From: Lunularia cruciata
Lineage: Eukaryota; Streptophyta; Marchantiopsida; Lunulariales; Lunulariaceae
Assembly: GCA_948567375.1 (NCBI GenBank)
Contig: OX419760.1
Coordinates: 62,058,911-62,122,910, forward strand
Reading direction: 5' to 3'
Length of the DNA stretch: 64,000 nt
Part shown: piece by piece, positions 8,311-59,919 of the stretch
Layout of the letters: each line of letters opens with the position of its first letter
Position numbering within the stretch: position 1 is the stretch's first letter
Made by a program: the position numbers and the translations under genes
The notes under the pieces: generated by a model
The model's database searches: none
Seen by the model: only the letters and a program-made list of their open reading frames with translations
What the model was told of the DNA's origin: nothing

Positions 8311-8933
8311 ATACTAGTTGTGGTATTATAGCCAAGCATATGAGTTTAGAGGTACTTGGATGTAGAGAGAGATGAGAGTCTTAGAAAATTTTCTTTATAT
8401 TATGTGGCACACTTGGCCTATTGGTATCCTAAGTTATTACCAATGTCAACAATCAAGGGTTACTAAATGACATACCAACAAACATTTCTTTCTTGGTGGC
8501 ATAAGATTTAAAGAACATGGTCCCATTCATTTGGTGATTTTTGGATGACCATGTCGGTGACATACCCATATTGACTAAGGTCAAGGTCTACAAGATCTCT
8601 ATTCCAATGTATTTTGGGATATGTTACATATACTATGGTATCTCTAGGTCATCAAGTCATTTTTTAGCCTATATTTTTGAAAATGTCCCTTTGATGGCCG
8701 ATCTTTGTGCATGGATAGTAGCAAGTACACATCAGATACATTATTGGATAAACCATGATATTAAATAGTAAGAATTGGATTGCAGCTCTTGATCTTTGGT
8801 AGATGAACCACTTACCTAGGGATGTTCTACATCATGCATATGATGGTATTCAAAAACCATCATATTTGATTGTTGATGATACCTTGGGTGTTGGGTGTTA
8901 GTCTTAGATTGTAGTAGTGGTTGATAGGTCATC
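8311..8933 (+). pseudogene. Family B copy B2: cytosine-C5 DNA methyltransferase remnant
   Basis: Second copy of the methyltransferase segment of B1 (16300-17219), on the plus strand. Visible in order: a motif-II-like block (RYLDVERDE, near 8355-8385); motif IV, GPIHLVIFG-stop-PC with the catalytic Pro-Cys codons at 8549-8554; motif VI, FENVPLM with Glu-Asn-Val at 8679-8687; and the block LPRDVLHHAYDGI followed by IVDDTLGVG. In DNA methyltransferases the Cys of motif IV attacks cytosine C6 and the Glu of ENV protonates it. At least four stops and two frame changes; not functional. The left edge abuts the C1 LTR and the right edge (8933) the A2 LTR, so motif I and the C-terminus are missing. 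Confidence 0.72.
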
Positions 8934-9347
8934 TATAAAGTTCCAAGACTAAGGAGAGAAATAGGATAATGGAAGATAACATTGGGACACTTGAATGAGA
9001 GAAAACTCCAAATACCTAGCATGAGCTTTGGTTTTGGTACTTATAGGAAGCATACACGGCTCTTGAGAAGCTTCTCAAGAAGCTTCCTTGAGCCATTTTC
9101 TTGGAGTGCAAGTCAAGTCAAGTGGGGAAGTTTCTCAAGAAGTCTTTTACTAGAAGTCCCTTACTTGGCATGCAAGCTAAGCTAGTTAGAAGCTTCTAGA
9201 AGCTACCTACTTGGAGTGCAAGCTAAGCTAACCAAGAAACTTCACAAGAAGCTTCTTATATACTTTTTGAATATTCTAGGCTAATTTTTTCTATTTGCTA
9301 CTTTGTTAATCCTAACTAACTTCATCACTAATCTCCATATTGTTACA
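8934..9347 (-). repeat. 3' LTR of A2 with polypurine tract
   Basis: 414 bp, minus sense TGTAACAATATGG… to …CTTTATA. It is preceded (minus sense) by a clear polypurine tract, AGAGAGGGGGATA, at 9348-9360, the primer for plus-strand DNA synthesis. Two perfect GAAGCTTC palindromes 12 bp apart lie at 9067-9086. Confidence 0.85.
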
Positions 9348-9399
9348 TATCCCCCTCTCTACTAATTGGTGGCATCCTTGTTGCCATTGAAACTTCAAA

Positions 9400-10760: not shown

Positions 10761-10829
10761 AACCTTGTACCATCTAAAAGAAAGGATCTTGTTGTAAAGT
10801 GGTCTTCAACTTGAGTTGGACTTTGGAGT

Positions 10830-12195
10830 CAATTGATACCATCATAATTGCCACCATGATGAGAGGAAGATACTTCAAATTAGGTCATTGTGACATGGTA
10901 TTAGGAATGATGTAGAACCGATCAGGTTTGTACTCAAGTTTGATGTCAAACAATTGTAGTTTTTCCTCCTATTGATGATGTTGACTCTTCATGTGTTCCA
11001 AGTGTAATGTCTACAATAAGGGTTCATGATCGGTTCACATTATCACCTATTTTCCCAAGAGATAATATCTCCATACTTTGGTGGCATATACCATTGCTAA
11101 TTTTTCTTGATCTTGGGCAAAGTAATTCCTTTCCGTGGTGTTTTATTGGTGAAACACAAGGGCAATAGGATGTAACTCATATGGAAATTCTTGTTATAAC
11201 ACAACTCTAATGGTAAGGTTAGAAGCATCAAATTCAACTACATAAGGTAGTTGAGGATCATATGGTTGAAGAATGGGTCTTGAAGACACCATATGTTTAG
11301 CTTTTGGAATGCTTCTCCATGCTTGGCAGTCCATTGAAAGCTTGAGTTCTTCCCAAAGAGGTTGGTCAATGGTATTGCCACATGCACATAATAGTGGATG
11401 AACTGGTGGTAAAAAATTGTCAATCCATTAAATGCTTGCACCTCTATGGCATCCTTTGGAGTAGGCCAATCAATAATGGCTTGATTTTCTCCTCTTCCAT
11501 CTTGATCCCTTTTGATGAGATCTTGTGACCCAAGAAGGTGACTTCCTTTTGCCAAAAGGCACTCTTTGACTTCTTGCAATAGAACCTCCATTGATATAGT
11601 TGCCTTAGGACTTCCCGCACATGATTTATGTGTTCTACTTCCATCTTGTTATAGATTAAAATATCATCCAAGAACACCACCATGTATCAATCTAGTAGTC
11701 CATCCAACACCCAATGTATCTGATCCATGAAGACTACTAGAGCATTAGTGATCCCAAAAGGTAGAAATCTCTATTCAAGATGCACATACCTGATGCAAAA
11801 GGTAGTCTTTTTCACATCCTCCCTATCAATGGAGATTTGCCAATAGCCACTACAAAGATCCAACTTGGAGAAGTATTGTGCTTCACTCAATTGATCAAGT
11901 AAGTCATCAATTTGAGGTAAGGAATATGCATTCTTCATTGTTTGTTTATTGAGCCCATGGTAATCAATACAAAAACAAAGTCTTCCATTGTTCTTTGAAA
12001 CAAATAGTACTGATGGTTCCCAAGGAGATGTGTTAAGTCATATGGAATCCTTCTCCAACAACTCTATAAGTGTTATTTGCAACTCCACCAACTCCTTTGG
12101 TGAGAGCCAATAGATTGGTCTACTCATTGGAGTACTCCTTGGCCTTAACTCAACCTTGAAGGGCTTACAATTGATCATAGGGTAATCCCTTTGGC
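10830..12195 (-). pseudogene. A2 reverse transcriptase/RNase H
   Basis: Minus strand. The peptide VVFLDDILIYNK (within 11444-11683) is the reverse transcriptase catalytic box. It is followed by WQKEVTFLGHKIS and AFNGLTIFYHQFIHYY, the standard palm-to-connection segment of gypsy elements. RNase H follows at 11030-11400. The N-terminal fingers are encoded at 11800-12195 and run up to the B1 insertion point. Stops and frameshifts make it inactive. Confidence 0.82.
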
Positions 12196-12751
12196 TGTTG
12201 TGCATATATACATTGCTACACAACGTACATCGCTGTCAACATCATACACTATAGAAGCACAACTCACTCATAAGTCATACATAGACTCTAAAGTGCCACA
12301 ATAATCAGATTGTTTACCACTCTCAACTCAACTCAGCTCAGATTAATACTTGATATGTCACTCTATAAACTGCCAACAACTGGGCACTGATTACAGTCAA
12401 GCCACACCCACTCAAGCATAGAGAATCCATGTGACGCTCACTGGCCTTTGTCCACCATAGCCAGGAACTCGAAGGCTCAACATCAGAGAAGTGAGCTCTT
12501 TGGAGTTGCACTTCAAAAGTATACCCCCTGGACTCGAGCTAGGTCTGAACCCTAATGGTCCCACTAATAGCACACTCAATGGTGCAAACAGTGCAAAGTG
12601 ATGGTGGGCCACACTGTGAAGTCAATACCCCAAACACAAAATCTGACCGTCGGAAAGTAGTCTTTGAGAAACTGCTAAAATAACTCTAACTTCTATCATT
12701 GGAACTCCAATGTTTGAGTAATCGAAATGCAACACTACAAATGACGTGACA
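12196..12751 (-). repeat. 3' LTR of B1
   Basis: Two parts: a core (12303-12751) that aligns with the 5' LTR at 20846-21296, and an outer module (12196-12302) containing CACAACATACATCG-type repeats and the AAGTGCCACAA end. The outer module is absent from the 5' LTR but present at the same side of the B LTR copies at 1049-1531, 30055-30596 and 54169-54655. TG…CA ends are visible (TGTCACGTCATTT… in minus sense, …GCACAACA). Confidence 0.72.
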
Positions 12752-12757
12752 GCTGTC

Positions 12758-12872
12758 ATGTGTATACATCGCAACACAACATACATCGCTACACAACATA
12801 CATCGTTATCAACATTATACACTATAGAAGCACAACTCACACATAAGTCATACATAGACTCTAAAGTGCCAC
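12758..12872 (-). repeat. Direct repeat of the B LTR outer module
   Basis: About 115 bp nearly identical to 12196-12302 and in the same orientation, lying just inside the 3' LTR. The same doubled arrangement occurs in B3 (54169-54261 and 54655-54765), so it predates the separation of the two copies. Confidence 0.75.
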
Positions 12873-13047
12873 AATTGCCCCCTAGCTGGCGGTTAGGTCC
12901 CTCTAACTCCAGATAGCCATCATCTCTAAGTATATGGTATACCCTATAATGAGCAAAGATCAGGAGGCCGGGTGCTATGGAGCCCCATCGTTAGTCGCTT
13001 GTTTGCAATCTATACTATATAAAGAATGAAGTAGCTATAGGTCAAAT
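12873..13047 (-). other. B1 3' untranslated spacer
   Basis: Sequence between the PHD finger and the 3' repeat, conserved in B3 at 54766-54938 (e.g. CTAGCTGGC / CTAGCTAGC and the shared ATGGTATACCCTATAATG-type stretch). No ORF seen. Confidence 0.5.
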
Positions 13048-13375
13048 ACATCTAGGACATAACCATTGTCCCTAAGGAACCACCGTGAGGAGAGGAGTCA
13101 TACATGCCATATGCCATCCTCTCGAATAGCTATCACACACTAACATAGTAGCAGCTCCACTAGAAGAGCCACATAACATACACCTCAAGCCTACACGTAC
13201 AAGTGCCAAGCTTGGGTCCATAGTACCATCAATGTTTGGGAGGTGGCATGGCACACAATTGCACACATGATCTTTCCAAACAACACCATCACGTCCTTCC
13301 AACACAAGGACTCCAGATGGCAAAACCTCACGCACTCTCAAGATAGTGCGGCTTGTCAAAACATCAAGTGTCATT
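13048..13375 (-). pseudogene. B1 integrase C-terminal domain plus PHD finger
   Basis: The minus-strand ORF 13072-13374 begins LRVREVLPSGVLVLEGRDG and CVPCHLPNIDG, taken as the tail of the integrase. It then shows C-M-L-C, eleven residues, V-C-D-S-Y, R-G-W-H-M-A-C, TPLLTVVP, stop, G-Q-W-L-C-P-R-C (13182 down to 13048). This is the C4-H-C3 spacing of a PHD finger, including the W two residues before the penultimate Cys and the hydrophobic TPLL…VP loop. The fourth Cys is Tyr here but Cys in B3, and the stop here is Gln in B3. PHD fingers read histone H3 tails, commonly at Lys4. In this element it sits where chromoviruses have a chromodomain. Confidence 0.78.
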
Positions 13376-13589
13376 GGTGCTGTCTACTGTAGATATACAT
13401 AGTTGCTTGGATGAAATCGACCGATCGAGGGTCTATAACCTCCTCAAATGCTAGCATAGCATAAAGTATCTTTATGCTAAGCAATTGCCAAGTTTTCAAA
13501 GGCCATTGGCATCACTCTCCGAAAGATCTCTGCCCGCTAAGAACATGCATTCATCCATACATTGGGGTCATCCAAGTCCAAAACTATAG

Positions 13590-14375
13590 TAGCATCTCAA
13601 CAAATGGCTGCAAGTAAATTTGGATCTTGTCCATAGAGTAGAAAGTATGGAGAGAAGGATGCTAAGGAGGCTTGCCGGCTGAATCGATAGCCCATGGCCA
13701 ACCAAGGTAACTGGAGATCCCAATCTCCCAAGTAGCCTCTCTGCAAACCATACTTTTGCAATCCTCTCTTCACCATCTGAACCACTCTCTTTGCTAAGCC
13801 ATCTACCTCAAGGTGATCTTGAGATGTAGTACAATGATCAATCAAAGCCTTGTCACATAAGACCTGAAACTCTCCCAAGAACTCTGTACCTTGATCAGTC
13901 AAAACCTTAGTTGGTGCACCAAAATGACTAAGAACTCGATCTAGGAATGAGTAAGTTGTCCCTTCACTAGACTTGTCAGGAAGTGCCACCAACTCAATCC
14001 ACTTGGAGAAGTGCTCCACCATCACCAAAACATACCAATGATGTCTCACAGTCAGTGGTAAAAGTCCAGCAAAGTCCAAACTCCAACAATAACCCGATCC
14101 TATGATAGGTAATGGGTGTAACTATGGCATAGAAGCATTGAATGATGCTCTAACTCGGTCACAAACCACACATTTGGCAACAAACTGCTATACCTTGGTC
14201 TACATACCGTGCCAACAATAATGACTCTAGAGTAAATACTCTATATGTATGTTTTACTCCAAAATGTCCTAGCTCCTCATGAGCATGATGGACCAACTGT
14301 GGTCTCTGTGCTGGAAGTGGTACTACTCGCACTCTACCATCCTCCCATACACACAAAAGGTGTTTGCTCTCCAAT
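13590..14375 (-). pseudogene. B1 integrase (zinc N-domain and catalytic core)
   Basis: The zinc-binding part lies in 14159-14374 (HHAHEELGHFG, then C-C-Q-M-C). The core lies in 13597-14079: first Asp in MDFAGLLPL, second in VLTDQGTEF, and the third catalytic position in DGLAKRVVQ, where Lys replaces the Glu seen at the same place in B3. The YxLLYGQDPNL block closes the core. An intact-looking 160-codon frame in a decayed element suggests this segment is relatively well preserved, but the Glu loss would abolish strand transfer. Confidence 0.85.
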
Positions 14376-15700
14376 CTTAACCATCTGGCTTGATTAAGAA
14401 CACGGTCTCTCTCCTTGGCCCCAATTGTGCCACTTATAACACCAGTGTGAAGATATCCATCACTAAGACATCATCATGAATGTCTCGCTGAACTGTACCA
14501 ATATCTTCCCTCTTTGGATCTGTGACCTCAATAACTCCTCCTATATGCGCTAAGAGAGATACCACCAAAGCCTCTAAAAATATACATAGAAAGGCCGATG
14601 CATGCCAACTTGGCAGCATCTCCTCATCTATCTCACCATGCCGACATGCTCCGGTCTAATCTTGCAAGCTGGGACATGGGTTTCTACTCAATACATCTGC
14701 ATCATGGTTCACCACTCCAGGTCTGTGAACAACCGTGAAATCATACTCTTGTAAAATCAGAGCCTATTGTGCAAGCTTCCCTAAAAGCTTGTTGGACTTC
14801 ATCAACCACTTTAGTGGCTGATGATCAATGATGAGAGTGAAGGGGTTACCAAATAAGTAACATTGAAAATGTGCTACTGCCCAAACTGTTGCCAAGCACT
14901 CTCCCTCATATGAACTATATTTCACCTCCGCTGAATTTTTGGAGCAATTAGCAAAGGCCACCACAAACTCCTTCCCCTCATCATCATGTTGGGTGAGCAC
15001 CGCTCCAAAGCCCAACATTTTCCAATCAGTATGAATCTGAAATGGCCGTCCTCAAATCGGTCTCCTTAAAATAGGAGCAGATGTCAACCTCTCCTTGAGC
15101 TCTATAAAAGCTCTCTCCTGCTCATCTCCCCAACACCACTCATGTGTAAGCTTGGTCAGCTTTATCAAGGCCTTGGCAATGGCACTAAATCCTCAAACAT
15201 AGCGGTGATAGAAGTTTGCCAACCCAAGGAATGCTCACACTCTGCTCACATCCATTGGCCAAGGAATAAGTGCAATAACCTCCACCTTGGTCTGCTAGCA
15301 AAATCCAATCCAGCTAGGGTCCTATCCATGACCCTTTGGAACTCAGCAAGAGTGTTCTTCAACCCAAATGGTAAGAACCTCCACTGATATAACACATCCT
15401 TGCCGTGAGAATCAATAGCCCAAAATGTTGTCTTGGACTTATCCTCTTCCCTGATTGGCAACTGATGATATCCCGCTCAAAGATCCAAAGTACTAAAGAC
15501 CTTTACATGCCCAGTTGCATCAAAAATCTCCTCCGGTGTAGGCATGGCATACCAATCAGCCCTGGTCTATTGGTTGATAGGACGGTAATCTCTACACATC
15601 CGCCTATCTGTGTAGTTGCCATGCATATCCTTCTTGGCTGGCATCACTATTGTTGATGCATACTCTCTATGTGAAATTCCACCAAACCAGCCTCAAAAAG
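14376..15700 (-). pseudogene. B1 reverse transcriptase and RNase H
   Basis: Minus strand. Reverse transcriptase fingers/palm: VFSTLDL-stop-AGYHQLPIREED, then WRFLPFGLKNTLAEFQRVMDR (15246-15461 and upstream). Directly after LDFA the frame jumps to KVEVIALIPWP, so the YxDD active-site segment (roughly 200 bp) has been deleted. The connection FLGLANFYHRYV is at about 15180-15245. RNase H at 14764-15018 has GFGAVLTQHDDEG, YSSYEGECLA and IIDHQPLKWL. The A-L-T-Q and D-H-Q-P-L-K-W signatures are typical of Ty3/gypsy. A spacer (14376-14760) leads to the integrase. Confidence 0.85.
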
Positions 15701-16299
15701 GTCACTACCCCGGCTCTAAATCAATGTCCTCTCCATCTCACTATATTGATAAGGACGTCAAAAAACTGGTGTATTGCTAGTCAGCTCAATCCGTATACCA
15801 TGTCCTTTTAGAGCACCCAAATCCTTCATACTGAAGGCAAAACAACTCGTGTGGCTCCTCAAGAACCTCCAAACCCTTAGTCTTTCCTCTCCAGTAAGCT
15901 TGGATCCAAGATTTGGCTCACAAGTATCCTCTATAACTATAGTAGGAGTGGAAGACGTACTGATTGGCTACTACACTGGGCCCTTGGGAGGAATAGTGTC
16001 ATGCTCTCGACCACTAGAGGTCCCAACCTCTGTGTGAAAAACTCCCTCCACTCTGGCTGCAAGCTCCACACGTCCTCTAGTTGCATCCTAAGTGGACCAA
16101 GGGTGTAATCCAAGTAGCCCACACTCACCTGGATGGACTCCAAGTAGACCACTCTCCCTAGTAGCTATTGGATGTGTCCCAAGAATACCATGTCCACTCG
16201 GTCCATCGTCCCCAATATGTGCCTGAATCGTCTCGATAGGCACATGGCTCACAAGTGTTCGAGTGGTGATGCCTATCAAGCGCATCCTACGGCTCTACC
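15701..16299 (-). other. B1 segment between methyltransferase and reverse transcriptase
   Basis: About 600 bp in the position where a protease would be expected. Frames give LSHVPIETIQ (16088-16285) with repeated G-x-HP units, and near the reverse transcriptase LKGHGIRIELTSNTPVF, the usual entry into the fingers domain. I see no D-[ST]-G protease motif. It runs without LTR or break from the methyltransferase into reverse transcriptase, which ties the two together. Confidence 0.5.
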
Positions 16300-17219
16300 A
16301 AGCCAAGGCTCACAATCCAGGTCAAACAATTTAGGTCCATGCCTGACCTAACACCTAACGCATGGATGCCTCTAACACCACTGGAACAGTGGTAATACCA
16401 GTGCAAAAATCCATTGCCCACTCTCTCTCATCAACGTTGGGCTCCACCAACTGATGTAACTGTGAGTCCCAAACAAGTCCAGATCCTCCCTCTTGAAAAG
16501 CATGAGAGCTTGGGAAACTCATGAGTGTGGGAAATGTGGCTCTAGGCTGTCCAACTAGGTTCACCACTGCCATAGGTGACCTATCAGCCACTACCACTGT
16601 CTGAGACTGACGTCCAACATCCAAGATGTCATCAACAAGGATGTGGTCAAGTCGCTAAATCCCATCATAAGCGCATTGTAGAACCTCTTTGGGTAAGATG
16701 TTTGTCCTCCAAAGACAAAGATGATGAGCCCGTGATCCCACTCTGACTGCATCTAACAATACAACAGGTCCCATCTAAGAATGGACCTGATGTGTACTTG
16801 CCACCACTCTGGTGTGAGAATCACCCATCAAAGGAATGTTCTCCAAAAGGTAAGCTGGAGAAACGGACTGATGAACGTGGAGATGTCATAATATCCATAA
16901 CACTCCCAAAACACACCTAAACAAGGATCCTGAAGACCCAAACTGCGGCCCGCATGTGTATGTCCCTAACATGACCATCCAGAAATCACCAAGTGAATAG
17001 GCCCATGTCTCTCTAGGTCATGCGCCCCCAGTAAGGAAATATCTACTCATAGGATCTTCTGGTAACCTCTGACTGTTGACATCAATAATAACTCCGGATA
17101 CCAATAGGCCAAGTGTGTCACATGATGTAGAGAGACTCGCCTAGCAGTCTCATCTCTCTTTACATACAAGTACCTCTGTACTCGGATACCCGCCTGTAAC
17201 ACTGTAGCTAGTCTGGTGC
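16300..17219 (-). pseudogene. B1 cytosine-C5 DNA methyltransferase domain
   Basis: Minus strand, about 306 codons over three frames. In order: STRLATVLQAGI (tail of motif I; the rest is cut off by C2), RYLYVKRDETARR (motif II), GPIHLVISGWSC-stop (motif IV at 16966-16980; Pro-Cys-Gln reads Ser-Cys-stop here but keeps Pro-Cys in B2), LLENIPLMGD (motif VI, Glu-Asn at 16838-16843), VLLDAVRVGSRAHHLCLW (motif VIII region, 16698-16790), EREWAMDFCTG (motif IX region) and VLGQAM/DLNCLTWI (motif X, split by a 1-base shift, 16303-16372). Order and spacing fit the catalytic domain of DNMT enzymes, which transfer methyl from S-adenosylmethionine to cytosine. It is contiguous with reverse transcriptase downstream. 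Inactive in this copy. Confidence 0.75.
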
Positions 17220-17601
17220 TGTGAGCCGGCCTGTCTCTCACTCAGGATGAACTTTGATAGCTATTATGGTAGCGCACCATGGACTAAGAAGGCAAGGAAC
17301 TCCAACTCCATCATACTCCTCCAAGGCTAACACTCCAAGACTCAAGACATTGCTCACTAGAGAACTCAATGAGAGAGAGATAGTTGCAAATGAAAGGATG
17401 ATGAGTACCTCCTCACCCCTTGTTTATATACTTATGAAATAGTTACGTACCAAAGTTACTAATTACTACAATAACTCAAGTTACTAAACTAGAAGTCAAG
17501 TCAAAAAGTAGAAAGGAATATCCATTCACATGGGCATATTCCCCTTAGCATGTGGTCTTATCTTGACCCAACCACTAAGTCAAGGATTCCTTCACATAGG
17601 G
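17220..17601 (-). repeat. Partial 3' LTR of C2
   Basis: Aligned with the last 390 bp of the C3 LTR (about 24366-24756); the first 300 bp are missing. In minus sense the LTR ends GGCCGGCTCACA at 17220, matching the C3 LTR end at 24756. Upstream it joins integrase coding sequence at about 17601, so an internal deletion removed the integrase C-terminus and the LTR start. Confidence 0.82.
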
Positions 17602-17921
17602 TAATTAGTAACTACCACAATGTACCAATTGTTCCTTGGGGTTCTATTGAGAGGACCTACAAAATCAATTCCCCACTTCTCAAAAGGTCCTAGCAATGAA
17701 ATTGATCTAAGTGGTGGAGCGGATGTAGACTTTCTAGCAAAAGCTTGAAAAACATGACAAGTTTTGCAATAATCAAGACAATCCTTGAAAATCCCTCTCC
17801 AATAGTAACTTGCATCTAGAATCTTGAAAGCAGTCACCTTTCCTGCAAAGTGTCCTCCACATACTAAACCTTCATGAAACTCCTTTATGAGTAAGATAGA
17901 CTCTTCCTTACCCATTGCTCT
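17592..17921 (-). pseudogene. C2 integrase N-terminal half
   Basis: Residues GGHFAGKVTAFKIL … DYCKTCHVFQ form the zinc-binding H-H-C-C domain. FEKWGIDFVGPL carries the first catalytic Asp, and NNWYIVVVTNY follows before the frame breaks off into LTR sequence. The DFVGP context is typical of Athila/Tat-type integrases. Truncated before the second Asp and the Glu. Confidence 0.85.
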
Positions 17922-19072
17922 TCAAAGTAGACCATCTGCTCCTTGGTGAAAAATAATATCCTCCACCATTGTGTAAGGTTTAGATCTTGCTGCAAGGGCC
18001 TTCCTCTCCCTAGCATGCATCCCTTTTGGATAGTTACCTCTTGTCACAAAATCCAAAATCTCCTTGTATTCCTTTGGAACCTCTTGAGTGACTGAGATTG
18101 TCATGAGCTCCTCATCTGAGAAGGAATCATCCATTGGCTCATCTCCATCATGATCATAGGCTCTAGATAACAAATCAGCATTTGCATGTTTCTTTCTTGG
18201 CCTATCTTCAATGGTGTAGTCATACTCAGACAAGAGTATCATCCACCTTGCTAGTCTCCTTTCAACATTAGGCTTGTTGAAGATGTACTTCAAAGCCTTG
18301 TGATCCGTGACAATGGTGGCTTTCCCTCCAATCAAGTAGTGTCTAAACTTCTTGAGACCAAAGATCAATACCAACCCTTCTCTCTCAATGACAGAGTAGT
18401 TCTTCTCTGCCAAAACCATCTGCCTACTAGCATAAGCTATTAGATGATCATGCTTATCTTGGTCTAATTGACTAAGAGTGCATCCTATAGCTACATTATA
18501 AGCATCAGTGTAGAGGATGAAAGGCTTACCCCAATCAGGTTTAGCAAGAATTGGAGCTACAACAAGGGATTGCTTGAGCTCCTCAAAAGCTTTGAGAGCC
18601 TCCTTGTCCTCCAAAATCACCATGTAATCTACACCCTTCTTCATGTAGATATTCAATGCAAAAGCCTTGTTGGAAAATGAGAAGATGAACCTCCTATGGT
18701 ATCCAACCATCCCCAAGAATTGGCGTAACTTTGTCAAGCTTGAAGGGAATGGAAGGTCTGAGATTTTCCTCACCTTCTCAAGATCAATTGCTATTCCATC
18801 CTTGGAGATGATGTGCCCCAAAAGTAGACCTTCTTCACATCCAAAAATGCACTTCTCTTGGTTGAGTGATGCATTTGCCTCATCCAAGCATTGCAAGACC
18901 TTGATTAGGTGCTCAAAGTGCTCCTCCTTGCTCCCATAGACACAAAAGTCATCAATGAAGTCTCTCACAAATTTCCCAATGAAAGGTTCAAATACCTTGT
19001 TCATGAACCGTTGGAATGTGGCTGGAGCATTGCAAAGCCCAAAAGGCATGACCTTGAAAGCGTAAGTTCCTC
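17922..19072 (-). pseudogene. C2 reverse transcriptase/RNase H, 375-codon open frame
   Basis: Open from 19049 to 17922 without a stop, the longest intact retroelement frame in the window. The start is truncated: the Met at 19049 is the internal MPFGLCNAPATFQRFM motif. Catalytic box FIDDFCVYG follows, then GHIISKDGI, LRQFLGMVGYHRRF, RNase H with LYTDAYNVAIG (catalytic Asp kept), YSVIEREGL, VTDHKAL and the tether ending HQGADGLL. Residues 1-200 are reverse transcriptase palm/thumb, about 215-330 RNase H. It would not act without its N-terminus. Confidence 0.9.
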
Positions 19073-19511
19073 AATATTGTCTTCATAACTCAATCTCCTC
19101 CAAATGAGCTCTCTTGAACTCATGGTAGGCATCCATCGGCGGACCCTCTAGATGCTAAACCAACCTCTTCTATGCCATGAAAGGTGTGAACAAAGTTGGG
19201 TTCCGCATCTACTACAGATCACACCAACTATCAAACTCCTAGATGAAGTCATCCAACTCAATGGTACCCATTATACCAGAGTAATGCCTAGGGCTTTTGG
19301 AGGCCCCATAAATATCATCCATGTCCCACAACAATGGGGCAAACACACCAAGTGCACTCTCAACTAAATCAGCTCCAGTGTCAAACTCCAACTCAGATTC
19401 AATCTCCTCCCTCATTGGGACCTAAGATACAGGCTGATACTGAGCACCACTCCAAGTAAACCTACTACGTATTGTAGGGCTAACTCCTCTAGAATCTCCA
19501 AAGAACTCCAT
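19073..19511 (-). pseudogene. B1 gag-like ORF
   Basis: The ATG at 19511 (minus) opens MEFFGDSRG, followed by SRFTWSGAQYQPVS, PLLWDMDDIYGASK and, with stops between, PPMDAYHEFKRAHLEEIEL before C2 starts. The same N-terminus occurs in B2 at 4939 on the opposite strand. Position after LTR and leader and before the pol domains suggests Gag, but no zinc knuckle or capsid motif is visible in the surviving part. The end of the window (63860-64000) has a related FKHAHLEEIDL stretch. Confidence 0.55.
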
Positions 19512-20845
19512 TGTGACAAAGTAACCGCAACAACAAACCAAAACCACCAATTGCAACTACAAGTCGCAACCGCAAGTACCCCACCAAGTGCCAACACCAC
19601 CAAGTGCCAATACCAACTAAGCACCACCCACTAATGTAACTCTAACCGAGATAACTACACTAGGTAAAAGGGCAACATGTAACCTGCCATCATAACACGC
19701 ACTCTCATGGTCTGTAGGTCATCACTTCTTGCCTCACCAGAGAGAAACAAAGGTAGTTTGACTAGTCATCACTCTAGCCTCACTACCGAGAGCACACTAG
19801 AGCACCAACGCTCAAAACTTAGAGCATCTCACACAAACGTGGTGCACAAACAAGAAGTAGAGAATGGAGGGGGTCCAAACACAAGAAATCTAAACAAAAA
19901 CCTTCCATCTCATAACACAACATGGGACTGACTCTGCCACCATTTGGCATTTGACATAAGAGAAGTTTGTATCTAAGTCCTAAGCTACTAGGATCACCAA
20001 GAATGGGATCAAACTGCCTCTCCTAGCCAAAGCTACATGTGTATAGATAACAATGGCACAGTCACTAGGACAACAAGTGAGGGTGGACTAGTTGGCTAGG
20101 GCACCAGTCTAGGAACAAGAGATCTAGGGATCAAACCCTGTTGCACACAATCTAGCAAGAAAGGCAGATTTTGCCAACCAATGACCAAGATATACTCTGA
20201 ACTAGTTAGCCTCATGCCAGCAAGCTGGCTTGTTGGCTCTTCTAGGCCTTCGTAGCCTCTCATAGCCCACAGCCCTATGCCTTGATGCCTCTAAATGCCA
20301 AATGAGACCTTTCTTCTTGCCACTTTGAACCTCTTCCAAAATTAGTGAAAACTTCTCGAAACTTGCAAAAGCCCTCCAAACTAGCAAAACTCCTCCAAAT
20401 CTGGCCAAACAGCGAAACTCATCCAAATCTTACGTAAAGTCTGACATAAACCCTAAAGTTGGATGTCCGCCAAATCTCCTGCTAACTATCCACTTGGGCC
20501 AAATTGACAACACGGGTTTCTCCAAATCACAAATTCATGATAATAGCTTCCCAACTCCACCTTCAATTTGACTTTCTGAGCCCAATTTATAGCAAATTGG
20601 TCTTGCCTTCATCTCTTGAGCTCAAAATCACAATTGTTGCTTGAAATTTACTCCTTTGCTCAAAAATTGGCCAAGGTTTCCATACACCATCTGCCTTATT
20701 GCCAAATCTGCATCAATTGAATGAGCTTTTGTACACTTGGGAAAATTTGAACTTGAATCAAGCTACCAACGATCCACCGAGCTTGTAGATACCACCAACA
20801 CTCAAAGTTCCTATATCCAATTTCCCCTTGACTTCACTTCTCTGA
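19512..20845 (-). other. B1 leader between 5' LTR and gag
   Basis: 1.3 kb with no long recognisable frame. A primer-site remnant (ATCAGAG in minus sense, the core of the initiator-Met-tRNA site) sits at 20838-20848, at the LTR edge. A 74-codon frame at 20202-20426 has no match I recognise. Confidence 0.5.
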
Positions 20846-21296
20846 TGTAATCAAACTTTTTACCACTCTCAACTCAACTCAACTCAAATCAATACTTGAT
20901 CTATCACTCTATAATTGCCAACAATTGGGCACTAATTATAGTCAAGCCACACCCACTCAAGCATAGAGAATCCAGGTGACGCTCGCTGGTCTCTGTCCAC
21001 CATAGCCAAGAACTCGAAGGCTCAACATCAAAGAAGTGAGCTCTCTGGAGTTGCACTTCAAAAGTATATTCCCTGGACTCAAGCTAGGTCTGAACCCTAA
21101 CGGTCCCGCTGACGGCACACTTGACAGTGCAAACGGTGCAAAGTGACGGTGAGCCCCACCGTGAAGTCAGTACCCCAAACACAAAATCTGACCGTAGGAA
21201 AGTAGTCTTTGAGAAACTGCTAAAATAACTCTAACTTCTATCACTGGAACTCTTGTGTCCGAGCAATCTAGATGCGACACTACAAATGACATGACA
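20846..21296 (-). repeat. 5' LTR of B1
   Basis: 451 bp; minus sense TGTCATGTCATTTGTAG … TTTGATTACA. Aligns with the core of the 3' LTR (12303-12751) at roughly 85-90% by eye, but lacks the 107-bp outer module that the 3' LTR has. Confidence 0.78.
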
Positions 21297-22708
21297 TGGC
21301 AGATCATACGGAAATATGTCTGCAAACTCTTGAACTATTTGATCAACCATTGCTTGATGAGGCTCTTGACCTCCTCAAATTCTCCTTGTGTGATTGGCTT
21401 GATCTTCCTCTATAGGTGTTTCACTTATAAACTTCCCATATAGGGACTTATCTTCCTTCCAAGCTTGCTCTAAGGCTGCTTCACTAACAAACTTCCCATC
21501 TTGGGACTTATCTTCCTTCAAAGCTTGCTTTATGGCTGCTTTCTTGACAGACTTCACATCTTGGGATTGATTATACTTAGGTGTCTAACTCAAAGGTGCC
21601 ACACAACCTAATCAGAAATTCCTACCTTGGTGTTGTACTTGATTTGTTGTTGGTTCCAATCAAATTGAACCTTATGACGTTCTAGCCAAGGTAAACCAAA
21701 ATTGACTTCATGGTGCATAGGTGTCGCTACAAACCTCATACACTCCAAATACTCCTTCCTAATCTTGAAGGTAACAAGATGTGAGGTGCAGAATGTAGAA
21801 CCTTTTCTACCATTTTCCATCATCAATCTACTTCCAATTATTGACTTGATAGGAATACTTAAATCCTTTGCTAGTTGCATAAACATGCAATTTGTTGAAC
21901 TTCCAAAATCAATTAAAATCTTACAACCACAATCAGATATCATACCTTGCAATTGAAACAACCTTGCATAGGTCAAGCTTTCAATCCCATTGGAACTAAT
22001 CAAATCTCAATAGGTGGCTCAAAATCTCATATTGAGATTAATTGTCTTCCTAATCATTTAGCTCCACAATCTCCATTTGGGCAATTTGTTGGGATTGTCC
22101 ATTCTTGAGTGGACATTTAGCAATGCAATGTCCAATCTAGCAACAATAAAAGCAACCACTATTTTGCCATAATCTTTCCCAATCTATTGTACCAAGTGGT
22201 CTCTATTGGATGTCATCAATCTCCATTGGTGCCGGTTCCTCCACACGTGTGTAATGTGCTAGTTGGTTTTGTGAAGGTCGAGGTTGAGACCAAGTTGCCA
22301 ATACCAAGGAATCAAAGTGATCCACTAGTTGCATGGCTTCTTCCAAGTATTTTGGCTCTTGCATAGTCACTTCTAATTTGGTTTGTGACTTCAAGACCTC
22401 ACAAATTGATCCAAAGCTTCACCATCTATTATATCTAGAATTTGCATTATGGTGTTCTGGAATTACGTGATGTAGCTTCTTATGGAACCAATTTGCTTCA
22501 ACTTTGCCAACTTATCTTATGTGGCATTTATCACTAGGAATCTCTCAAATATTACACCCTTGAATTCTTCTTATGTCAAGATTGGTGCAACAAATTGCCT
22601 TTCAGCTTGCTCTACTTGGAATCACCACCATTACTTTGCTGCTCTATCCAATTTGCTTGTAGTTAAGAGAATTTGTTTCTATTTATCTTAGAGAATTTGT
22701 TTCTATTC
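21297..22708 (-). pseudogene. A2 protease and gag (5' part of A2)
   Basis: Minus strand. Gag pieces at 22203-22700 end in the CCHC knuckle near 22123-22165 (C-F-Y-C … H … C with one stop). The protease at 21608-22003 is open for 131 codons: MISDCGCKILIDFGSSTNCMF, where D-F-G-S-S stands at the D-[ST]-G catalytic site, and GLPWLERHKVQFDWN. Two repeated 60-bp pieces around 21410-21560 (AACTTCCCAT…TTGGGACTTATC) encode a short acidic repeat after the protease. The gag is cut at 22708 by the LTR of A4. A 24-bp tandem duplication (TTAGAGAATTTGTTTCTATT) lies at 22664-22708. Confidence 0.8.

Positions 22709-47971: not shown

Positions 47972-50428
<2,457 letters not shown>

Positions 50429-54100: not shown

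Positions 54101-54168
<68 letters not shown>
54101..54168. repeat. (AT)34 microsatellite
   Basis: 68 bp of uninterrupted AT dinucleotides between the copia integrase fragment and the B3 LTR. Confidence 0.98.
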
Positions 54169-54171
<3 letters not shown>

Positions 54172-54765
54172 CACAAAACATACATTGCTACCAATATGAT
54201 GCATTATACAAGCACTACTCAAATAAGAAGTCAAATATAAACTCTAAAGTGCAACAATAATCAGAAATAAGAAATTAGAAATTAGACTATATGTACTTTG
54301 CCAACAGGCATTGATTAGATTCATCAAGACAAACCCATTCTAGCACAAAGACTCCAAGTTGCACTCATTAGCTCTATCTACCATAACCAAGAGTTCAAAG
54401 GCTCAACATGGAAGAAGTAAGCTCTTTAGAGCTCCACTTCAAGGTATACTCGGGGAATCCAAGGAATCTATTCCTAATGGCACATCCAATGGTATTGGAA
54501 ATGTGAATGTTGAAAATGATGGCTTCTAATGAGGCATTGGAACCCTAATGTAATAGATGGCCACCACTAAGTAATCTTTGAGTAGCTATTGATATAACTA
54601 TGGCAGCCAAGATATTCATTCTAGTTTCTAACTTAGCATTACAAATGTCTGATATCTTTTGTGCATATATACATCACTACACAACATACATTTTTGTCAA
54701 TATCATACACTATACAAGCATAACTCATGTAGGAAGTTATATGAAAACTCTAAGTGACACCATTG
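54169..54765 (-). repeat. B3 3' LTR flanked by its outer module on both sides
   Basis: Outer module 54169-54261 (CACAAAACATACATTGC … AAAGTGCAACAATAATCAG), core 54262-54655, second module 54655-54765 (TGTGCATATATACATCACTACACAACATACAT … CTCTAAGTGACACCATTGCC). Same doubled layout as B1. Confidence 0.72.
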
Positions 54766-54938
54766 CCTCACTAGCTAGCACATAGGTCTTTCTAAATCCA
54801 AATAGCTGTCTTTTCCAAGTATGTGGTATGCCTTATGGTGTGCAAAGACCAAGAGGTATGGTGCTATCATGTCCCATCATTAGTTGTCTATTTGCAATCT
54901 ATACCACCTAAAGTAATGAACTTGCTAAAGTATCAAAT

Positions 54939-55200
54939 ATATCAAGGACAAAATCATTGCCCTTGAGGAAGCACCATAAGAAGAGGGGTCAAACATACCA
55001 TATGCTATCCTCTCAAACAGCTATCACACACCAACATAGTAGTAGCTCTACCAATAGAACCACATAACATACATCACAATCCTAAGTATACAACTACCAA
55101 GCTTGGCTTATCACACCATGAATGTTTGGGAGGTCGCATGGTGCCCAATTGTGCTAATGATTCTTCTAAATGACATCAACAAGTTCTTCCAACATGAGGA
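54939..55200 (-). pseudogene. B3 PHD finger
   Basis: Minus strand: C-M-L-C (55073-55062), eleven residues, V-C-D-S-C, R-G-stop-H-M-V-C, TPLLMVLPQGQ, stop, F-C-P (down to 54948), then a stop and Tyr where the last basic residue and Cys should be. The fourth Cys is kept here. Three stops stand exactly where B1 has W, W and R, so each copy confirms positions lost in the other. Upstream CHLPNIHG-like sequence continues the integrase tail. Confidence 0.75.
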
Positions 55201-55399
55201 CTTGAAAAGAAAAATCTCAAGCACTCTCAAGATAGTGTGACATGTATTCATATCATGAGTAGTCAATGCAGCTTGCTATATATATACATAATCATCTAAA
55301 TGAAATCAACAGATCAAGGGTTTATAACCTCACTTTCAAATAGTGGTATAATGTAAAGTATCTCTATTTTAAGCAATTGCCAAGTTCTTAAAGGCCATC

Positions 55400-55582
55400 A
55401 AGATCACTTTCTAAAAGATCTTTGCACATTGAGAACATACACTCACCCATACATTCATATCATCCAAGTCCAAAACTACAATAACATCAACACAATTAGC
55501 TATAAATAAATTTAAATCTTGTTCATATATAATGAAGTAGGGAGAGAAGGATGCTAAGGATACTTGCCATTTGAACCAATAG
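55400..55582 (-). pseudogene. B3 integrase, C-terminal part of core
   Basis: WFKWQVSLASFSPYFIIYEQDLNLF matches B1 FSRQASLASFSPYFLLYGQDPNL. The frame reaches the A5 insertion at 55582 inside the Met-Gly-Tyr codons. Confidence 0.82.
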
Positions 55583-55986
55583 TATAACAATATGGAATTT
55601 AGCAACAAAGTTAGTTAGGGCTAACAAAGTAGTCAATAGGCCAAATTAGCCCAAAATATTCTAGAAGTATCTAGGAATCTTCTTGGGAAGTTTCCCAACT
55701 AGCTTAGCTTGCACTCCAAATAAATAGCTTCTAGAAGCTTCCAACTAGTTTAGCTTGCAAGCCAAGTATACGGTTTCTAAAAGGAAGCTTCTTGAGAATC
55801 TTCTTGGTTAACTTGACTTGCACTCCAAGAAAGTGGCTCAAGGAAACTTCTTGAGAAGCTTCTTGTATGATCTCTATAAATACCAAAACCAAAGCTCATG
55901 CTAGGCATTTGTAGTTTACTACATTCAAGTGTCCCAATGTGATCTTCCATTCTCTTATTTCTCTCCTTGGTCTTGGATTTTTTACA
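55583..55986 (+). repeat. 5' LTR of A5
   Basis: 404 bp, TATAACAATATGG … GATTTTTTACA. TATAAATA at 55875-55882. GAAGCTTC-type palindromes upstream of it. Longer than its partner by about 48 bp because of one extra TAGCTTGCACTCC module. Confidence 0.92.
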
Positions 55987-55987
55987 T

Positions 55988-56003
55988 TGGTATTAGAGTA
56001 GGA
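55988..56003 (+). other. Primer-binding site of A5
   Basis: TGGTATTAGAGTAGGA, two mismatches to the initiator-Met-tRNA site (TGGTATCAGAGC) over its first 12 bases. Confidence 0.8.
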
Positions 56004-56019
56004 ATGGGATTGATGGAAT

Positions 56020-57270
56020 CTATGGACCACCAAATCCATTTCCACCAAACCATTGGGATTTTTGTGTGTGGGTACTACCAAACATCATTTCACATAGTTC
56101 ATCACCTCACATTTTGGGCAGAATTTTCCAAATGAAATCACCTTGTCCGAGGAACTCTTAGTACTTCCAATTGTAACTTATGGAGAACGGTGGATGTGTT
56201 GCATCTATGTGTTTGTAAATTAGATAAATTGGAGGTAGTGTGATAGAGTAGTAGCCATCATGGCAATGCTTGAGGTTATCATTGCTTTTCAGCAACAAAT
56301 CAAGTACCTTACTCTATTTTTGGATGAATAAGACTAGCAACAACAAGAGCACGTGTAGAGAGGACCATTTTGAGAAGGAGAAGATCAAATCTGATTCCAA
56401 AACCCAAGGTATTTGATGGCAAGAATCTTTTGGTCGCAATTGAGAATTTTGTATTTATCTTTGAACATTATTTCAAGGCTACAAATCTTCAGATGAACAA
56501 AAAAAAATTCTCTTAGCTTCAAGCCAATTGGATGGAGCAGCAAAGTTATGATTGTGATTCTGAGTAGAGCCAGCTGAAAGGTAGTTTTTTGCACCAATCT
56601 TGACATGGGAAGAATTCAAAGGTGCAATAATTGGGTGATTCCAAGTGATAAATGCCACACGAGCTACACAAGATAAGTTGGTAGTGTTGAAGCAGATTGG
56701 TTCTGTAAGAAGCTACATCATGCAATTCCAGAACACCATTATGAAAATACCATATGTTATGGATGGTGAAGCTCTGGATCAATTTGTGAGGAGCTTGAAG
56801 TCACAAAAATAATTAGAAGTGACTATGCAAGAGCCAAAATACTTGGAAGAAGCCATGCAACTAGTGGAGTGCTTTGATTCCTTGGTTGTGACAACATGGT
56901 CTTGACCTTGACCTTCACAAAATCAACTAGCATATTACACACATGTGGAAGAACCGACACCAATGGAGATTGATGATATCCAACATAGATCACTTGCTAT
57001 AATGGACCGGGGAAAGATCACGGCAAAATGGCGGTTGCTTTTATTGTCACAATATTAGACATTAAATTGTTGAATGTCCACTCAAGAATGTGCAATCTCA
57101 ACAAATTGCCCAAATGAAGGTTATGGAGGGGAATGATTAGGAAAACAAGGAATCCCAATAGGGTTTTGAGCCGCTTATTGGGAACTTGATTGGTTCCAAT
57201 GGGATTGGCTCGACCTATACAAGTTTGTTTCACTTGCAAGGTACAATATCTAATTGTGGTTGTGGGATGA
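56020..57270 (+). pseudogene. A5 gag and start of protease
   Basis: Gag in changing frames; zinc knuckle at 57036-57077, C-F-Y-C-x4-H-x4-C, with all four ligands kept but one stop between. The protease start GSNGIGSTYTSLFHLQGTISNCGCGM (57190-57262, split here) matches A2 21940-22003, after which the protease and most of reverse transcriptase are deleted. Confidence 0.78.
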
Positions 57271-57960
57271 CTTGTTTGATCAATAGCGAGAAGTCCTAAG
57301 ATGACTATGACAATAGAAGTTTTATTGCAAGAAGTTGAAGTGTGCCTCTTGGCAAAAGGAAGTCACCTTCTTAGGTCACAAGATCTCATTGGAGGGAATC
57401 AAGATGGAAGGAGAGAAAATTGAGGCCATTACTAATTGGCCTACTCCAAAGGATACTATAAAAGTATGAGCATTTAATGGATTGGCTACTTTTTATTGAC
57501 AATTCATCCACTACTATGCTCATGTGGCCGCACCATTGACTGACCTCTTGGAGAAGAACTTGAGCTTTCAATGGAGCACCAAGCACAAAGAAGCATTCTA
57601 GAAGCTGAAATATATGGTGTCTTCAAGACCTATTCTTCAACCATATGATATTGTACTACCTTGAGTGGTTGATTTTGATGCTTCTAACTTTGCCATTAGA
57701 GCCATGTTGCAGCAAGAATTCCCTGATGGGTTACATCCCATTGCCTGTGTCTTGCCGAGTAAACACCGCAGAAAGGAATTACTCTACACAAGATCAAGAA
57801 CAAATAGCAATGGTATATACCACTAAGCTATGGAGGAATTATCTCTTGGGAAAATAGGTGATCATGTGAACTGATCACAAGCCTTTGTTGCAAACATTAC
57901 ACTTCAAACACATGAAGAATTGACATCATTGATGTCAAACACCTACAATTGTTTGACATC
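57271..57960 (+). pseudogene. A5 reverse transcriptase C-terminus and RNase H
   Basis: Starts in the thumb (WQKEVTFLGHKIS-type reading, 57350-57400), then AFNGLATFY, FIHYYAHVAAPLTDLL, RNase H DFDASNFAI (57667-57700) and a TAERNYSTQDQEQIA block. No YxDD box: it was removed by the internal deletion joining protease to thumb at about 57270. Confidence 0.8.
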
Positions 57961-58109
57961 AAATTGGAGTACAAACTTGGTTGGTTCCATGTCATCCGTG
58001 ATGCCCTATCAAAAAAACCTGATTTGAAGTCTCTTCTTCTTATCATGACAACAATTACAATAGTATCAGTCAACTCCAAGTCCAAATTGAGTTTAAGATA
58101 ACTCTACAA

Positions 58110-59500
58110 CTAGATCCCTTCTTTTAGATGATACAAGGTCATCTTGTAGCATGCGACAAGGAGAACAACACCTTCTCTTTCAAGGAAGGCCTTCTAGTCC
58201 ATGAGGATTGGATCTATGTTCTAGCCAAAGGTGATCTCCAATTTGTGCACCTTCAAGAAGCCCATGATTTACCAATTGTTTGTCACATGGGTGTAGACAA
58301 GACCTTGGGTACTTTCCAATGCCAATGGTGGTGGCCTAACATGGTATGAGATGTTTGGGAGTTTTTTTAATCATGTGAGAACTACCAATGCAACAAGGCC
58401 AATAACCAAAAACCAAGTGAACTCCTTCAACCACTCCACATTCCATCTACTAGTTGGGAATATGTGAGCTTAGATCTCATCACATCCTTGCCCAAGACAA
58501 AGCAAGGTCACATAGCAATTATGGTGTTTGTGGATAATCTTAGTAAACAAATCCATTTAGCACCAACTGTTGATATTGTGGATGCTCCAACCTTGGCGTA
58601 GATCTACTTTGATAATGTATTCAAGCATCATGGGATACCGCATGTACTCATCTCCAACCGTGATCCTTGCTTATTGGATTTTTTTGCAAGTACTCTTCCA
58701 AATACTCGGCACCAAGCTTGCTTTGACCACAGCATATCATCCTCAAATTGATAGACAAATTGAATGTGCAAACCACACCTTGGAGGATGTGCTTTGTGCT
58801 TTTGTTAATGTTAACCATACCAATTGAGATGAATGTCTTGTAGTTATGGAGTTTGTATACAATAATTCCAAATGGGCAAGCACCAAATTCTCTCCTTTCT
58901 TCCTCAATTTTGGCCAAGATCCACTTGTTCTAGATTCTCTTCTTACTCTTCCTCCATCTCATGTCTCTCATACTTCAACCTTCTTGACCACCATATCTCT
59001 ATCCCTCCAACAAGCCAAATCTCACCTCCTTATTGCCCAAAATCATCAAAAATAATATGTAGACCACCATCATTGTGATCTCACCTTTCAAGTTCATGAT
59101 AAAGTCATGCTCTTATCTAATAACCTACCTTTCCCACTTGATATCTAAGTCCATAAACTTGCTCTAAATTAGATAGGGCCCTTTTAGGTCATAGAAATCA
59201 TTTCTCTTATTGCTTATCAATTTGCCTTGCCTTGTCATATGTACATCCATCCTATCTTTCATATTTCCAAGTTGAAACCCTTTTTCCCTAATCCATCTTC
59301 TTTATCCTCTTGTGTCCAACCTCCTTCTCCTCCCATCCCTATCAATGATCATGAGGAATATGAAGTTGATTGCATCCTCGTACGTTGCCACATTAAACAA
59401 GTACACCAACAACATATGGAAGTACAAGATCCTTTGGAAAAGGTATCTCCTTCATGATGCCACATGGGAACCTCTTTGTCATCTCCAAAATGCACAAATG
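58110..59500 (+). pseudogene. A5 integrase and chromodomain
   Basis: The 58128-58349 frame carries HLQEAHDLPIVCHMGVDKTLG (zinc domain), followed by C-E-N-Y-Q-C. Core: SLDLITSLPKTKQGH (first Asp), LISNRDPC (second Asp), IECANHTLEDVLCAF (Glu). The next frame 58846-59055 matches A1 384-713. A chromodomain at about 59350-59490 reads EYEVDCIL … WKYKILWKRYLLHDATWEPL. All catalytic residues are present, but stops break the frame. Confidence 0.85.
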
Positions 59501-59563
59501 ACCATCTGTGAGTTTGGAGTTTTAATGGCAATAAGGATGTCATCCACTAACGGTGGAGGAATG

Positions 59564-59919
59564 TGTAACAATATGAAGTTTAGCAACAAATTTAGTTAAG
59601 GCTAACAAATTAGTGAACATGCCAAATTAGCCTAGAATATTCTAAAAGTCTCTATGAAGCTTCTTGGTTAGCTTAGCTTGCATCTCAAATAAGTAGTTTC
59701 TAGTTGGAAGCTTCTAGAAGCTTCCAACTAGTTTAGCTTGCAAGCCAAGTATACGGCTTCTAGAAGGAAGCTTCTTGAGAAACTTCTCAAGAACCTTGTA
59801 TGCTCTCTATAAATTCCAAAACCATAGCTCATGCTAGGCATTCAGAGTTTACCACATTCAAGTGTCCCAATGTGATCTTCCATTCTCCTATTTCTCTCCT
59901 TAGTCTTGGATCTTTTACA
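59564..59919 (+). repeat. 3' LTR of A5
   Basis: 356 bp, TGTAACAATATGAAG … GGATCTTTTACA, about 90% identical to the 5' LTR over shared positions by eye, so the insertion is old. Preceded by the polypurine stretch GGTGGAGGAATG (59552-59563). Confidence 0.92.

What the first reader, a model, noticed from the sequence alone, without database searches (positions are those of the whole stretch)
16300..17219. Cytosine DNA methyltransferase domain inside a plant LTR retrotransposon
On the minus strand the motifs of a C5-cytosine methyltransferase occur in the right order: the tail of motif I (STRLATVLQAG), motif II (RYLYVKRDE), motif IV (GPIHLVISGWSC), motif VI (LLENIPLMGD), the motif VIII region, motif IX (EREWAMDF) and motif X (VLGQAM/DLNCLTWI). 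It runs on the same strand without LTR or other break into the reverse transcriptase of B1. From memory, retrotransposons with captured cytosine methyltransferases have been reported in dinoflagellates and charophyte algae; I know of none in a vascular plant. An element able to methylate its own DNA would reshape the usual silencing conflict. This copy is dead (stop after motif IV Cys, frameshifts).
Basis: partly seen in the sequence, partly recalled or inferred. Interest (0 to 1): 0.95.

Follow-up and report, generated by a model that had tools for sequence, protein, structure and literature searches.

The report
Retrotransposon carrying a DNA methyltransferase
A dead plant jumping gene in this window once encoded its own DNA-methylating enzyme; close relatives occur in mosses and liverworts, so a curiosity published from algae also belongs to land plants and could be tested in a laboratory liverwort.

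Summary
Confirmed and extended. Window 17219-16293 (-) is a decayed C5-cytosine methyltransferase. A protein search with it gave 41 homologues, best E 8.5e-116, 62% identity. It lies in a 9.1-kb retroelement (12196-21296, minus strand): repeat A1, gag start, [foreign insert], methyltransferase, reverse transcriptase, RNase H, integrase, PHD finger, repeats B1-A2-B2, with a possible GCCA target duplication. Database relatives carry these domains fused in one protein. The domain is DNMT3-type, not rearranged. The nearest published system is KnitGypsy-Dnmt3 of the alga Klebsormidium, with the same repeat layout (PMC5890265). New here, as far as searched: land-plant hosts (all 32 organism-named hits of 117 are bryophytes), an integrase-linked PHD finger, and two domain orders. 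The 'vascular plant' premise is unsupported: the host could not be identified, and the evidence leans to a bryophyte. Function is inferred: methylation of the element's own DNA, possibly with PHD-guided integration. This copy is dead.

The parts
12196..21296 (-). whole retroelement copy, 5' TG at 21296, 3' CA at 12196 (contains a foreign insert)
   Evidence: repeat edges; the only TG..CA pair within 10 and 20 bases of the edges with a duplication of 4 or more bases
21297..21300 (-). possible target site duplication GCCA, 5' side
   Evidence: rate for a random TG..CA pair 0.0085, several pairs were tried
12192..12195 (-). possible target site duplication GCCA, 3' side
20848..21296 (-). terminal repeat A1
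   Evidence: 89% identical to A2 (400 of 449), no convincing B copy beside it
19074..19322 (-). gag start remnant
   Evidence: 65% identity to Marchantia P0042 residues 1-83
17220..19073 (-). foreign sequence: RT-RNaseH-IN fragment of another Gypsy element (about 19070-17604) plus a 380-base repeat (17600-17220); lies where the rest of gag, the protease and motif I would be
16293..17219 (-). decayed DNMT3-type C5-cytosine methyltransferase (motif I tail to motif X)
   Evidence: stops and frameshifts
14626..15919 (-). reverse transcriptase and RNase H
   Evidence: colinear with P0103 and Marchantia P0050; RT_RNaseH Pfam 8.4e-24 in 14764-15018
13597..14425 (-). integrase (H2C2 region and rve core)
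   Evidence: rve Pfam 4.7e-12; 54.6% identity to P0103 over 14220-13048
13048..13200 (-). PHD finger at the integrase C-terminus
   Evidence: PF00628 E 4.3e-4, below the curated cut-off in the decayed copy; same place in P0103 at 3.8e-8; window residues
12781..12875 (-). repeat B1, preceded by a purine tract (AGGGGG)
   Evidence: 94% identical to B2 (89 of 95)
12302..12751 (-). repeat A2
12196..12302 (-). repeat B2 (3' terminus)
8314..8936 (+). second, more decayed methyltransferase copy, cut off by other repeats on both sides
   Evidence: 71% DNA identity to copy 1 over the aligned part
54159..60580 (-). third partial copy: B-A-B repeats (54163-54763), PHD/IN end (54945-55582), 4.3-kb insertion, IN core (59921-60580)

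Best explanation
The window holds a dead copy of a Gypsy-type retrotransposon lineage that carries a DNMT3-type methyltransferase inside Pol. Layout: A1 - gag - protease - DNMT3 - RT - RNase H - integrase - PHD - B1-A2-B2 (in the window the protease and most of gag are replaced by a foreign insert; they are seen in relatives). Shown: the domain content and order, relatives with fused domains, the split repeats, and the decay of this copy. Inferred: Pol is cut by the protease; the DNMT methylates newly made element DNA, or the insertion site, de novo, probably at CG; the PHD finger reads a histone H3 tail and steers the integrase, as chromodomains are thought to do in chromoviruses (recalled). 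Element DNA would then arrive already marked, escaping a check for unmethylated DNA or landing in tolerated chromatin.
For: Homologues, 12 of 41 with PF00145. Fused relatives: P0103 (MTase-RT-RNaseH-IN-PHD, 1516 aa) and Marchantia P0050 (protease-MTase-RT-RNaseH). Window and the two Marchantia rows group in both the RT tree (100/98) and the MTase tree (100/100). Catalytic residues in 76 homologue domains: motif IV Cys 74, motif VI Glu 75, last motif VIII Arg 75. DNMT3A is the best solved relative, E 6.1e-12. PHD in 18 of the 25 proteins in which an integrase was found. DIRS-type retrotransposon DNMT3 of Symbiodinium methylates CGs de novo (PMC5890265, abstract and section 11 read).
Against: No activity, expression or methylation data for this lineage. 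In PMC5890265 the tested LINE-type retrotransposon DNMT did not methylate DNA in yeast (section 11), so activity cannot be taken for granted. Codon-position differences between decayed window copies give at most weak support for past selection: positions 1, 2, 3 differ at 0.304, 0.228, 0.329 (MTase), 0.268, 0.212, 0.218 (PHD/IN end, no third-position excess), 0.212, 0.169, 0.232 (IN core). Ordinary Gypsy elements transpose without a DNMT. The host is unidentified and no intact copy was seen in it.
Confidence: 0.72

Rival explanations
1. The methyltransferase is a host DNMT gene (or its pseudogene) that happens to lie next to a retrotransposon.
For: Non-flowering plants have host DNMT3 genes (PMC6453930, passages), and the window is a nest of insertions.
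Against: Relatives from several bryophytes and metagenomes have it fused to protease and/or RT-IN-PHD; a second copy sits in the window; 4 homologues align in one piece from MTase into RT.
Confidence: 0.03
2. The enzyme acts outward: it methylates host genes or competing elements, or dampens the element's own expression, rather than protecting its cDNA.
For: PMC5890265 (section 11) raises slowed transposition as an option. The element's coding region is CpG-depleted (observed/expected 0.31 against 0.75 around a host gene), as expected after long methylation at CG.
Against: No data separate this from cDNA methylation. CpG depletion is stronger in other repeats of the window (0.06, 0.01), so it most likely reflects host silencing.
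Confidence: 0.25
3. The domain no longer methylates and serves as a nucleic-acid-binding or structural part.
For: Glu replaces the motif IV Pro in 5 of 76 domains, and the first motif VIII Arg varies (Arg in 39 of 76). A LINE-type retrotransposon DNMT was inactive on DNA in yeast (PMC5890265, section 11).
Against: Catalytic Cys in 74 of 76 (2 gaps), motif VI Glu in 75 of 76 (1 Lys), across very diverged members.
Confidence: 0.1
4. The window is from a vascular plant, so the lineage spans ferns, lycophytes or conifers too.
For: Heavy nested, decayed insertions; an unrelated Gypsy element of the window matches Taxus at 52% over 99% of the query.
Against: All 32 named MTase hits of 117 are bryophytes; the same unrelated element is 77% and 74% identical to liverwort proteins over 69% and 53% of the query; a host gene at about 48.0-50.4 kb has introns of only about 100-450 bases (my reading).
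Confidence: 0.25

Closest known systems
KnitGypsy-Dnmt3 of Klebsormidium nitens (PMC5890265)
   Same: Gypsy-type Pol with an unrearranged Dnmt3 domain in the Pol ORF; repeat structure of the DIRS kind (A-coding-B-A-B)
   Different: Other hosts (bryophytes in the named hits); C-terminal PHD finger, a word absent from that paper's main text (figures and supplements not seen); sequences could not be compared, and no Klebsormidium protein is named among the 117 hits
SymbioDIRS-Dnmt3 of Symbiodinium (PMC5890265)
   Same: Dnmt3 in Pol; A-coding-B-A-B repeats; two domain orders occur
   Different: Those use a tyrosine recombinase; here the integrase is the rve (DDE) type
Plant DNMT3 host genes (PMC6453930, passages)
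   Same: Unrearranged DNMT3-type catalytic domain
   Different: Host genes have a C-terminal DUF3444; here the neighbours are protease and RT
DRM methyltransferases
   Same: Related catalytic domain
   Different: DRM motif order is rearranged; here it is canonical
Chromoviruses (Gypsy with a chromodomain; PMC2864245 seen in listing only, integrase position recalled)
   Same: Chromatin-reader domain at the integrase C-terminus

Membership tests
DNMT3 family | Canonical (not rearranged) motif order I, IV, VI, VIII, IX, X | tested here: met
   motif I itself is truncated in the window copy, complete in homologues
DNMT3 family | Closer to DNMT3 than to DNMT1/MET1, CMT, DRM or bacterial enzymes | tested here: met
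   PDB search with P0001: DNMT3A E 6.1e-12, DNMT3B 1.4e-9, 4onj (named 'DNA methyltransferase'; tobacco DRM by recall) 1.2e-8, DRM2 1.6e-4, HaeIII 3.5e-4; profile search: DNMT3A 1.5e-12, HhaI 1.6e-6, 4onj 1.4e-5, DRM2 7.5e-4, and no chain named DNMT1, MET1 or CMT among 57 matches at E<=10. Not tested by a tree with host plant enzymes
DRM family | Rearranged motif order | tested here: not met
KnitGypsy-Dnmt3-like elements | Gypsy-type RT, RNase H and rve integrase | tested here: met
KnitGypsy-Dnmt3-like elements | Dnmt3 inside the Pol ORF | tested here: met
   in relatives P0103, P0050, P0115 and others; the window copy is broken
KnitGypsy-Dnmt3-like elements | A-coding-B-A-B repeats | tested here: met
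   one full copy; B-A-B at 54.2-54.8 kb; A-B alone at 30.1-30.6 kb and 1.05-1.51 kb; only one 5' end (A1 without B) was available
KnitGypsy-Dnmt3-like elements | Common descent with the K. nitens sequences | not testable with these tools
   sequences not at hand; not among named hits
[quoted passage not shown]
   codon-position counts on decayed copies only
SymbioDIRS-Dnmt3 / DIRS | Tyrosine recombinase | tested here: not met
   rve integrase in the window; no Phage_integrase among the Pfam hits of full-length relatives P0103, P0085, P0098, P0115

The most novel reading that the evidence does not exclude
One DNMT3 capture founded a long-lived Gypsy lineage that pairs a DNA-methylation writer with a histone-reading PHD finger on its integrase, spread through charophytes and land plants, changed the place of the DNMT inside Pol once, and in Marchantia polymorpha (for which PMC5784723 lists five host methyltransferases of MET, CMT and DRM type and no DNMT3) is now the genome's only DNMT3.
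Probability: 0.2. Interest if true: 0.85.

Novelty: new variant of a known kind. Interest (0 to 1): 0.62.

Why it matters
Retrotransposons that carry their own DNA methyltransferase were published for coral-symbiont dinoflagellates and one charophyte alga (PMC5890265). Finding the same kind of element in land plants, with 23 of 117 hits named Marchantia polymorpha, including a 1278-aa protein with protease and DNMT regions (P0042), puts the question of what such an enzyme does for a transposon into a genetically tractable plant. The integrase-linked PHD finger suggests a combined writer and reader of chromatin marks. If elements can mark their own DNA, the usual picture of methylation as purely a host weapon needs amending.

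Tried and rejected
Direct Pfam scan of the decayed window pieces: no hit; PDB phmmer of the first piece: one chance hit at E 2.1. The viral-contig search for intact loci gave 7 loci with matches of 24-53% identity in contigs of 19-81 kb, which I take for phage-type methyltransferases and did not pursue. Rfam and tRNA scans of the window: nothing. Several lists were capped (for example 20 of 1,622), and subscription papers, preprints and supplements are not held, so this is not proof of absence. PMC12344493 (passages) restates the 2018 report for streptophytes and dinoflagellates, calling the LTR elements Copia. I first read the terminal repeats as ordinary LTRs; that fits badly, because A1 has no B beside it, B-A-B occurs at two 3' ends, and A-B alone occurs at two places. 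A relative (P0085) seemed from memory to carry a Dam-like adenine methyltransferase at its C-terminus; the Pfam scan did not support it, so it is not claimed. A tree against host plant DNMT3, DRM, MET1 and CMT was not possible: no such sequences were at hand; the human DNMT3A pieces used as outgroup sit on a very long branch.

Full report
What is there. On the minus strand, 17219-16293 reads as a C5-cytosine methyltransferase in broken frames. Scanned directly, the decayed pieces hit nothing in Pfam. Searched against about 5.8 billion proteins, the read found 41 homologues at E<=0.01, best 8.5e-116, 12 of 41 with precomputed PF00145. Against intact homologue P0001 the segment scores 222 and 135 bits in its two main pieces; the maximum over 200 two-base shuffles was 23.9 bits. 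The window copy keeps the catalytic Cys but has lost motif IV Pro, has a stop right after the Cys, and has lost two of three motif VIII Arg positions probed.

The element around it. Downstream on the same strand come RT, RNase H (Pfam 8.4e-24), integrase core (4.7e-12) and a weak PHD finger (4.3e-4, under the cut-off). P0103, a 1516-aa metagenome protein, has MTase, RT, RNase H, integrase and PHD in this order and aligns along the window from 16774 to 13048 in pieces of 28-55% identity. Marchantia P0050 (protease, MTase, RT, RNase H) aligns from 17220 to 14354, 53-66% in its main pieces. In four homologues a single alignment runs through MTase into RT. Upstream, a gag start remains at 19322-19074, and the sequence between it and 17220 is foreign: a piece of another Gypsy element and a 380-base repeat. 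Motif I was lost there.

Termini. A1 (21296-20848) matches A2 (12751-12302) at 400 of 449; B1 (12875-12781) matches B2 (12302-12208) at 89 of 95; near A1 only chance-like matches to B of 23 and 16 bases were found. Elsewhere in the window B-A-B occurs after a PHD end (54.2-54.8 kb), and A-B alone occurs at 30.06-30.60 and 1.05-1.51 kb, as recombination between A1 and A2 would leave. With TG at 21296 and CA at 12196 the flanks share GCCA. It is the only TG..CA pair tried near the edges with four or more matching bases; a random pair does so at 0.0085, so with several pairs tried this is moderate support. PMC5890265 calls A-coding-B-A-B typical of DIRS elements (Fig. 1 legend, section 6, read) and says of the Klebsormidium elements that their repeats are of the DIRS kind while their domains are Gypsy (Fig. 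4 legend, section 9, read).

Relatives. A second search, with P0001 padded by X to reach full-length proteins, gave 76 hits. In the 117 proteins of both searches, domain order by seed comparison was: MTase before RT 14, MTase after RT 18, one or both domains not found in the other 85. PHD was found in 18 of the 25 proteins in which integrase was found. The RT tree (26 rows) puts the 18 'MTase after RT' rows in one clade (100/99) and the window with the two Marchantia rows (100/98). The MTase tree on 24 rows also joins window and Marchantia (100/100) and groups seven MTase-first rows (89/92), but the MTase-after-RT rows are not one supported clade there, and P0115 (MTase-first, very long branch) stands apart in both. 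This fits one capture and one later move inside Pol but does not prove it. In the larger MTase tree (78 rows: 76 of the 117 homologues, those with a matched span of 230-450 residues, plus window and human DNMT3A) the window falls in a set of 24 rows that holds all 14 bryophyte-named rows of that tree (SH-aLRT 99).

Which methyltransferase. The best solved relatives of P0001 are DNMT3A (6.1e-12) and DNMT3B (1.4e-9), then 4onj, named only 'DNA methyltransferase' and by recall the tobacco DRM (1.2e-8), where part of the domain aligns; DRM2 is at 1.6e-4. A nine-sequence profile gives the same top rank, with HhaI (1.6e-6) above 4onj (1.4e-5), and lists no chain named DNMT1, MET1 or CMT among its 57 matches at E<=10. 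The order is not rearranged, so it is DNMT3-type, not DRM. Residues across the 76 domains: motif IV Cys 74, motif IV Pro 69 (five have Glu), motif VI Glu 75, motif VIII Arg 39, 72 and 75 at three positions.

Host. The genome could not be searched. Of the 117 hits, 32 carry an organism name: Marchantia polymorpha 23, M. paleacea 1, Sphagnum 4, Calypogeia 3, Riccia 1 (counted); the other 85 carry none. A different, better-preserved Gypsy RT in the window is nearest, among named proteins, to M. paleacea (77% over 69% of the query) and Riccia (74% over 53%), with Taxus at 52% over 99% (120 of 317 hits listed). A host gene at about 48.0-50.4 kb, which from memory resembles a prostaglandin E synthase 2-like glutathione transferase (one search gives only a sub-threshold glutaredoxin match), has introns of roughly 100-450 bases as I read them. 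I lean to a bryophyte, perhaps a liverwort; a vascular host is not excluded.

Mechanism. Shown: layout, relatives, decay. CpG observed/expected is 0.31 in the element and 0.75 around the host gene, but 0.06 and 0.01 in other repeats of the window, so the decay fits general host methylation of repeats and says nothing about the element's own enzyme. Inferred: the DNMT travels with Pol and methylates element DNA around reverse transcription or integration, and the PHD finger guides the integrase. Support for activity is indirect: conserved catalytic residues here, and de novo CG methylation by DIRS-type Symbiodinium DNMTs in PMC5890265 (abstract, section 11); the LINE-type DNMT tested there was inactive on DNA in yeast. 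Evidence for selection in this genome is weak: codon-position differences of 0.304, 0.228, 0.329 (MTase), 0.268, 0.212, 0.218 (PHD/IN end) and 0.212, 0.169, 0.232 (IN core).

Novelty. The kind is known (PMC5890265; restated in PMC12344493, passages). The host range in land plants, the PHD finger and the two orders in Gypsy-type elements are not in any listing or passage I saw (searches). In Marchantia polymorpha, PMC5784723 (passage) lists five host methyltransferases of MET, CMT and DRM type and no DNMT3; whether the element is then the only DNMT3 there is a lead, not a result.

Noticed in passing
window 48000-50420 (+): An apparently intact host gene with about six exons as I read it; the protein resembles, from memory, a prostaglandin E synthase 2-like glutathione transferase. 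CpG is much less depleted in this region (0.75) than in the repeats.
   Followed up: partly
window 55583-59920 and 8937-11618: A 4.3-kb insertion splits a third copy of the DNMT element between integrase core and C-terminus; related sequence (57286-59915) also abuts the second methyltransferase copy at 8937.
   Followed up: partly
window 17220-17600, 24370-24756, 7649-8028: A shared repeat of about 380 bases abuts methyltransferase copy 1 and lies about 290 bases before copy 2, but in opposite orientation relative to the gene; both copies begin at nearly the same motif I position.
   Followed up: no
window 63633-63992 (-): A second gag fragment of the same family at the window end (40% identity to P0042 residues 57-170).
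   Followed up: no
P0084, P0095, P0096, P0099, P0105: A tight clade of five relatives; five of the 76 domains have Glu in place of the motif IV Pro next to the catalytic Cys. That these are the same five is likely but was not printed.
   Followed up: no
P0059-P0072, P0074-P0076, P0078-P0080: Twenty long relatives show protease and methyltransferase but no RT, which may mean that RT is in another frame in that clade.
   Followed up: no
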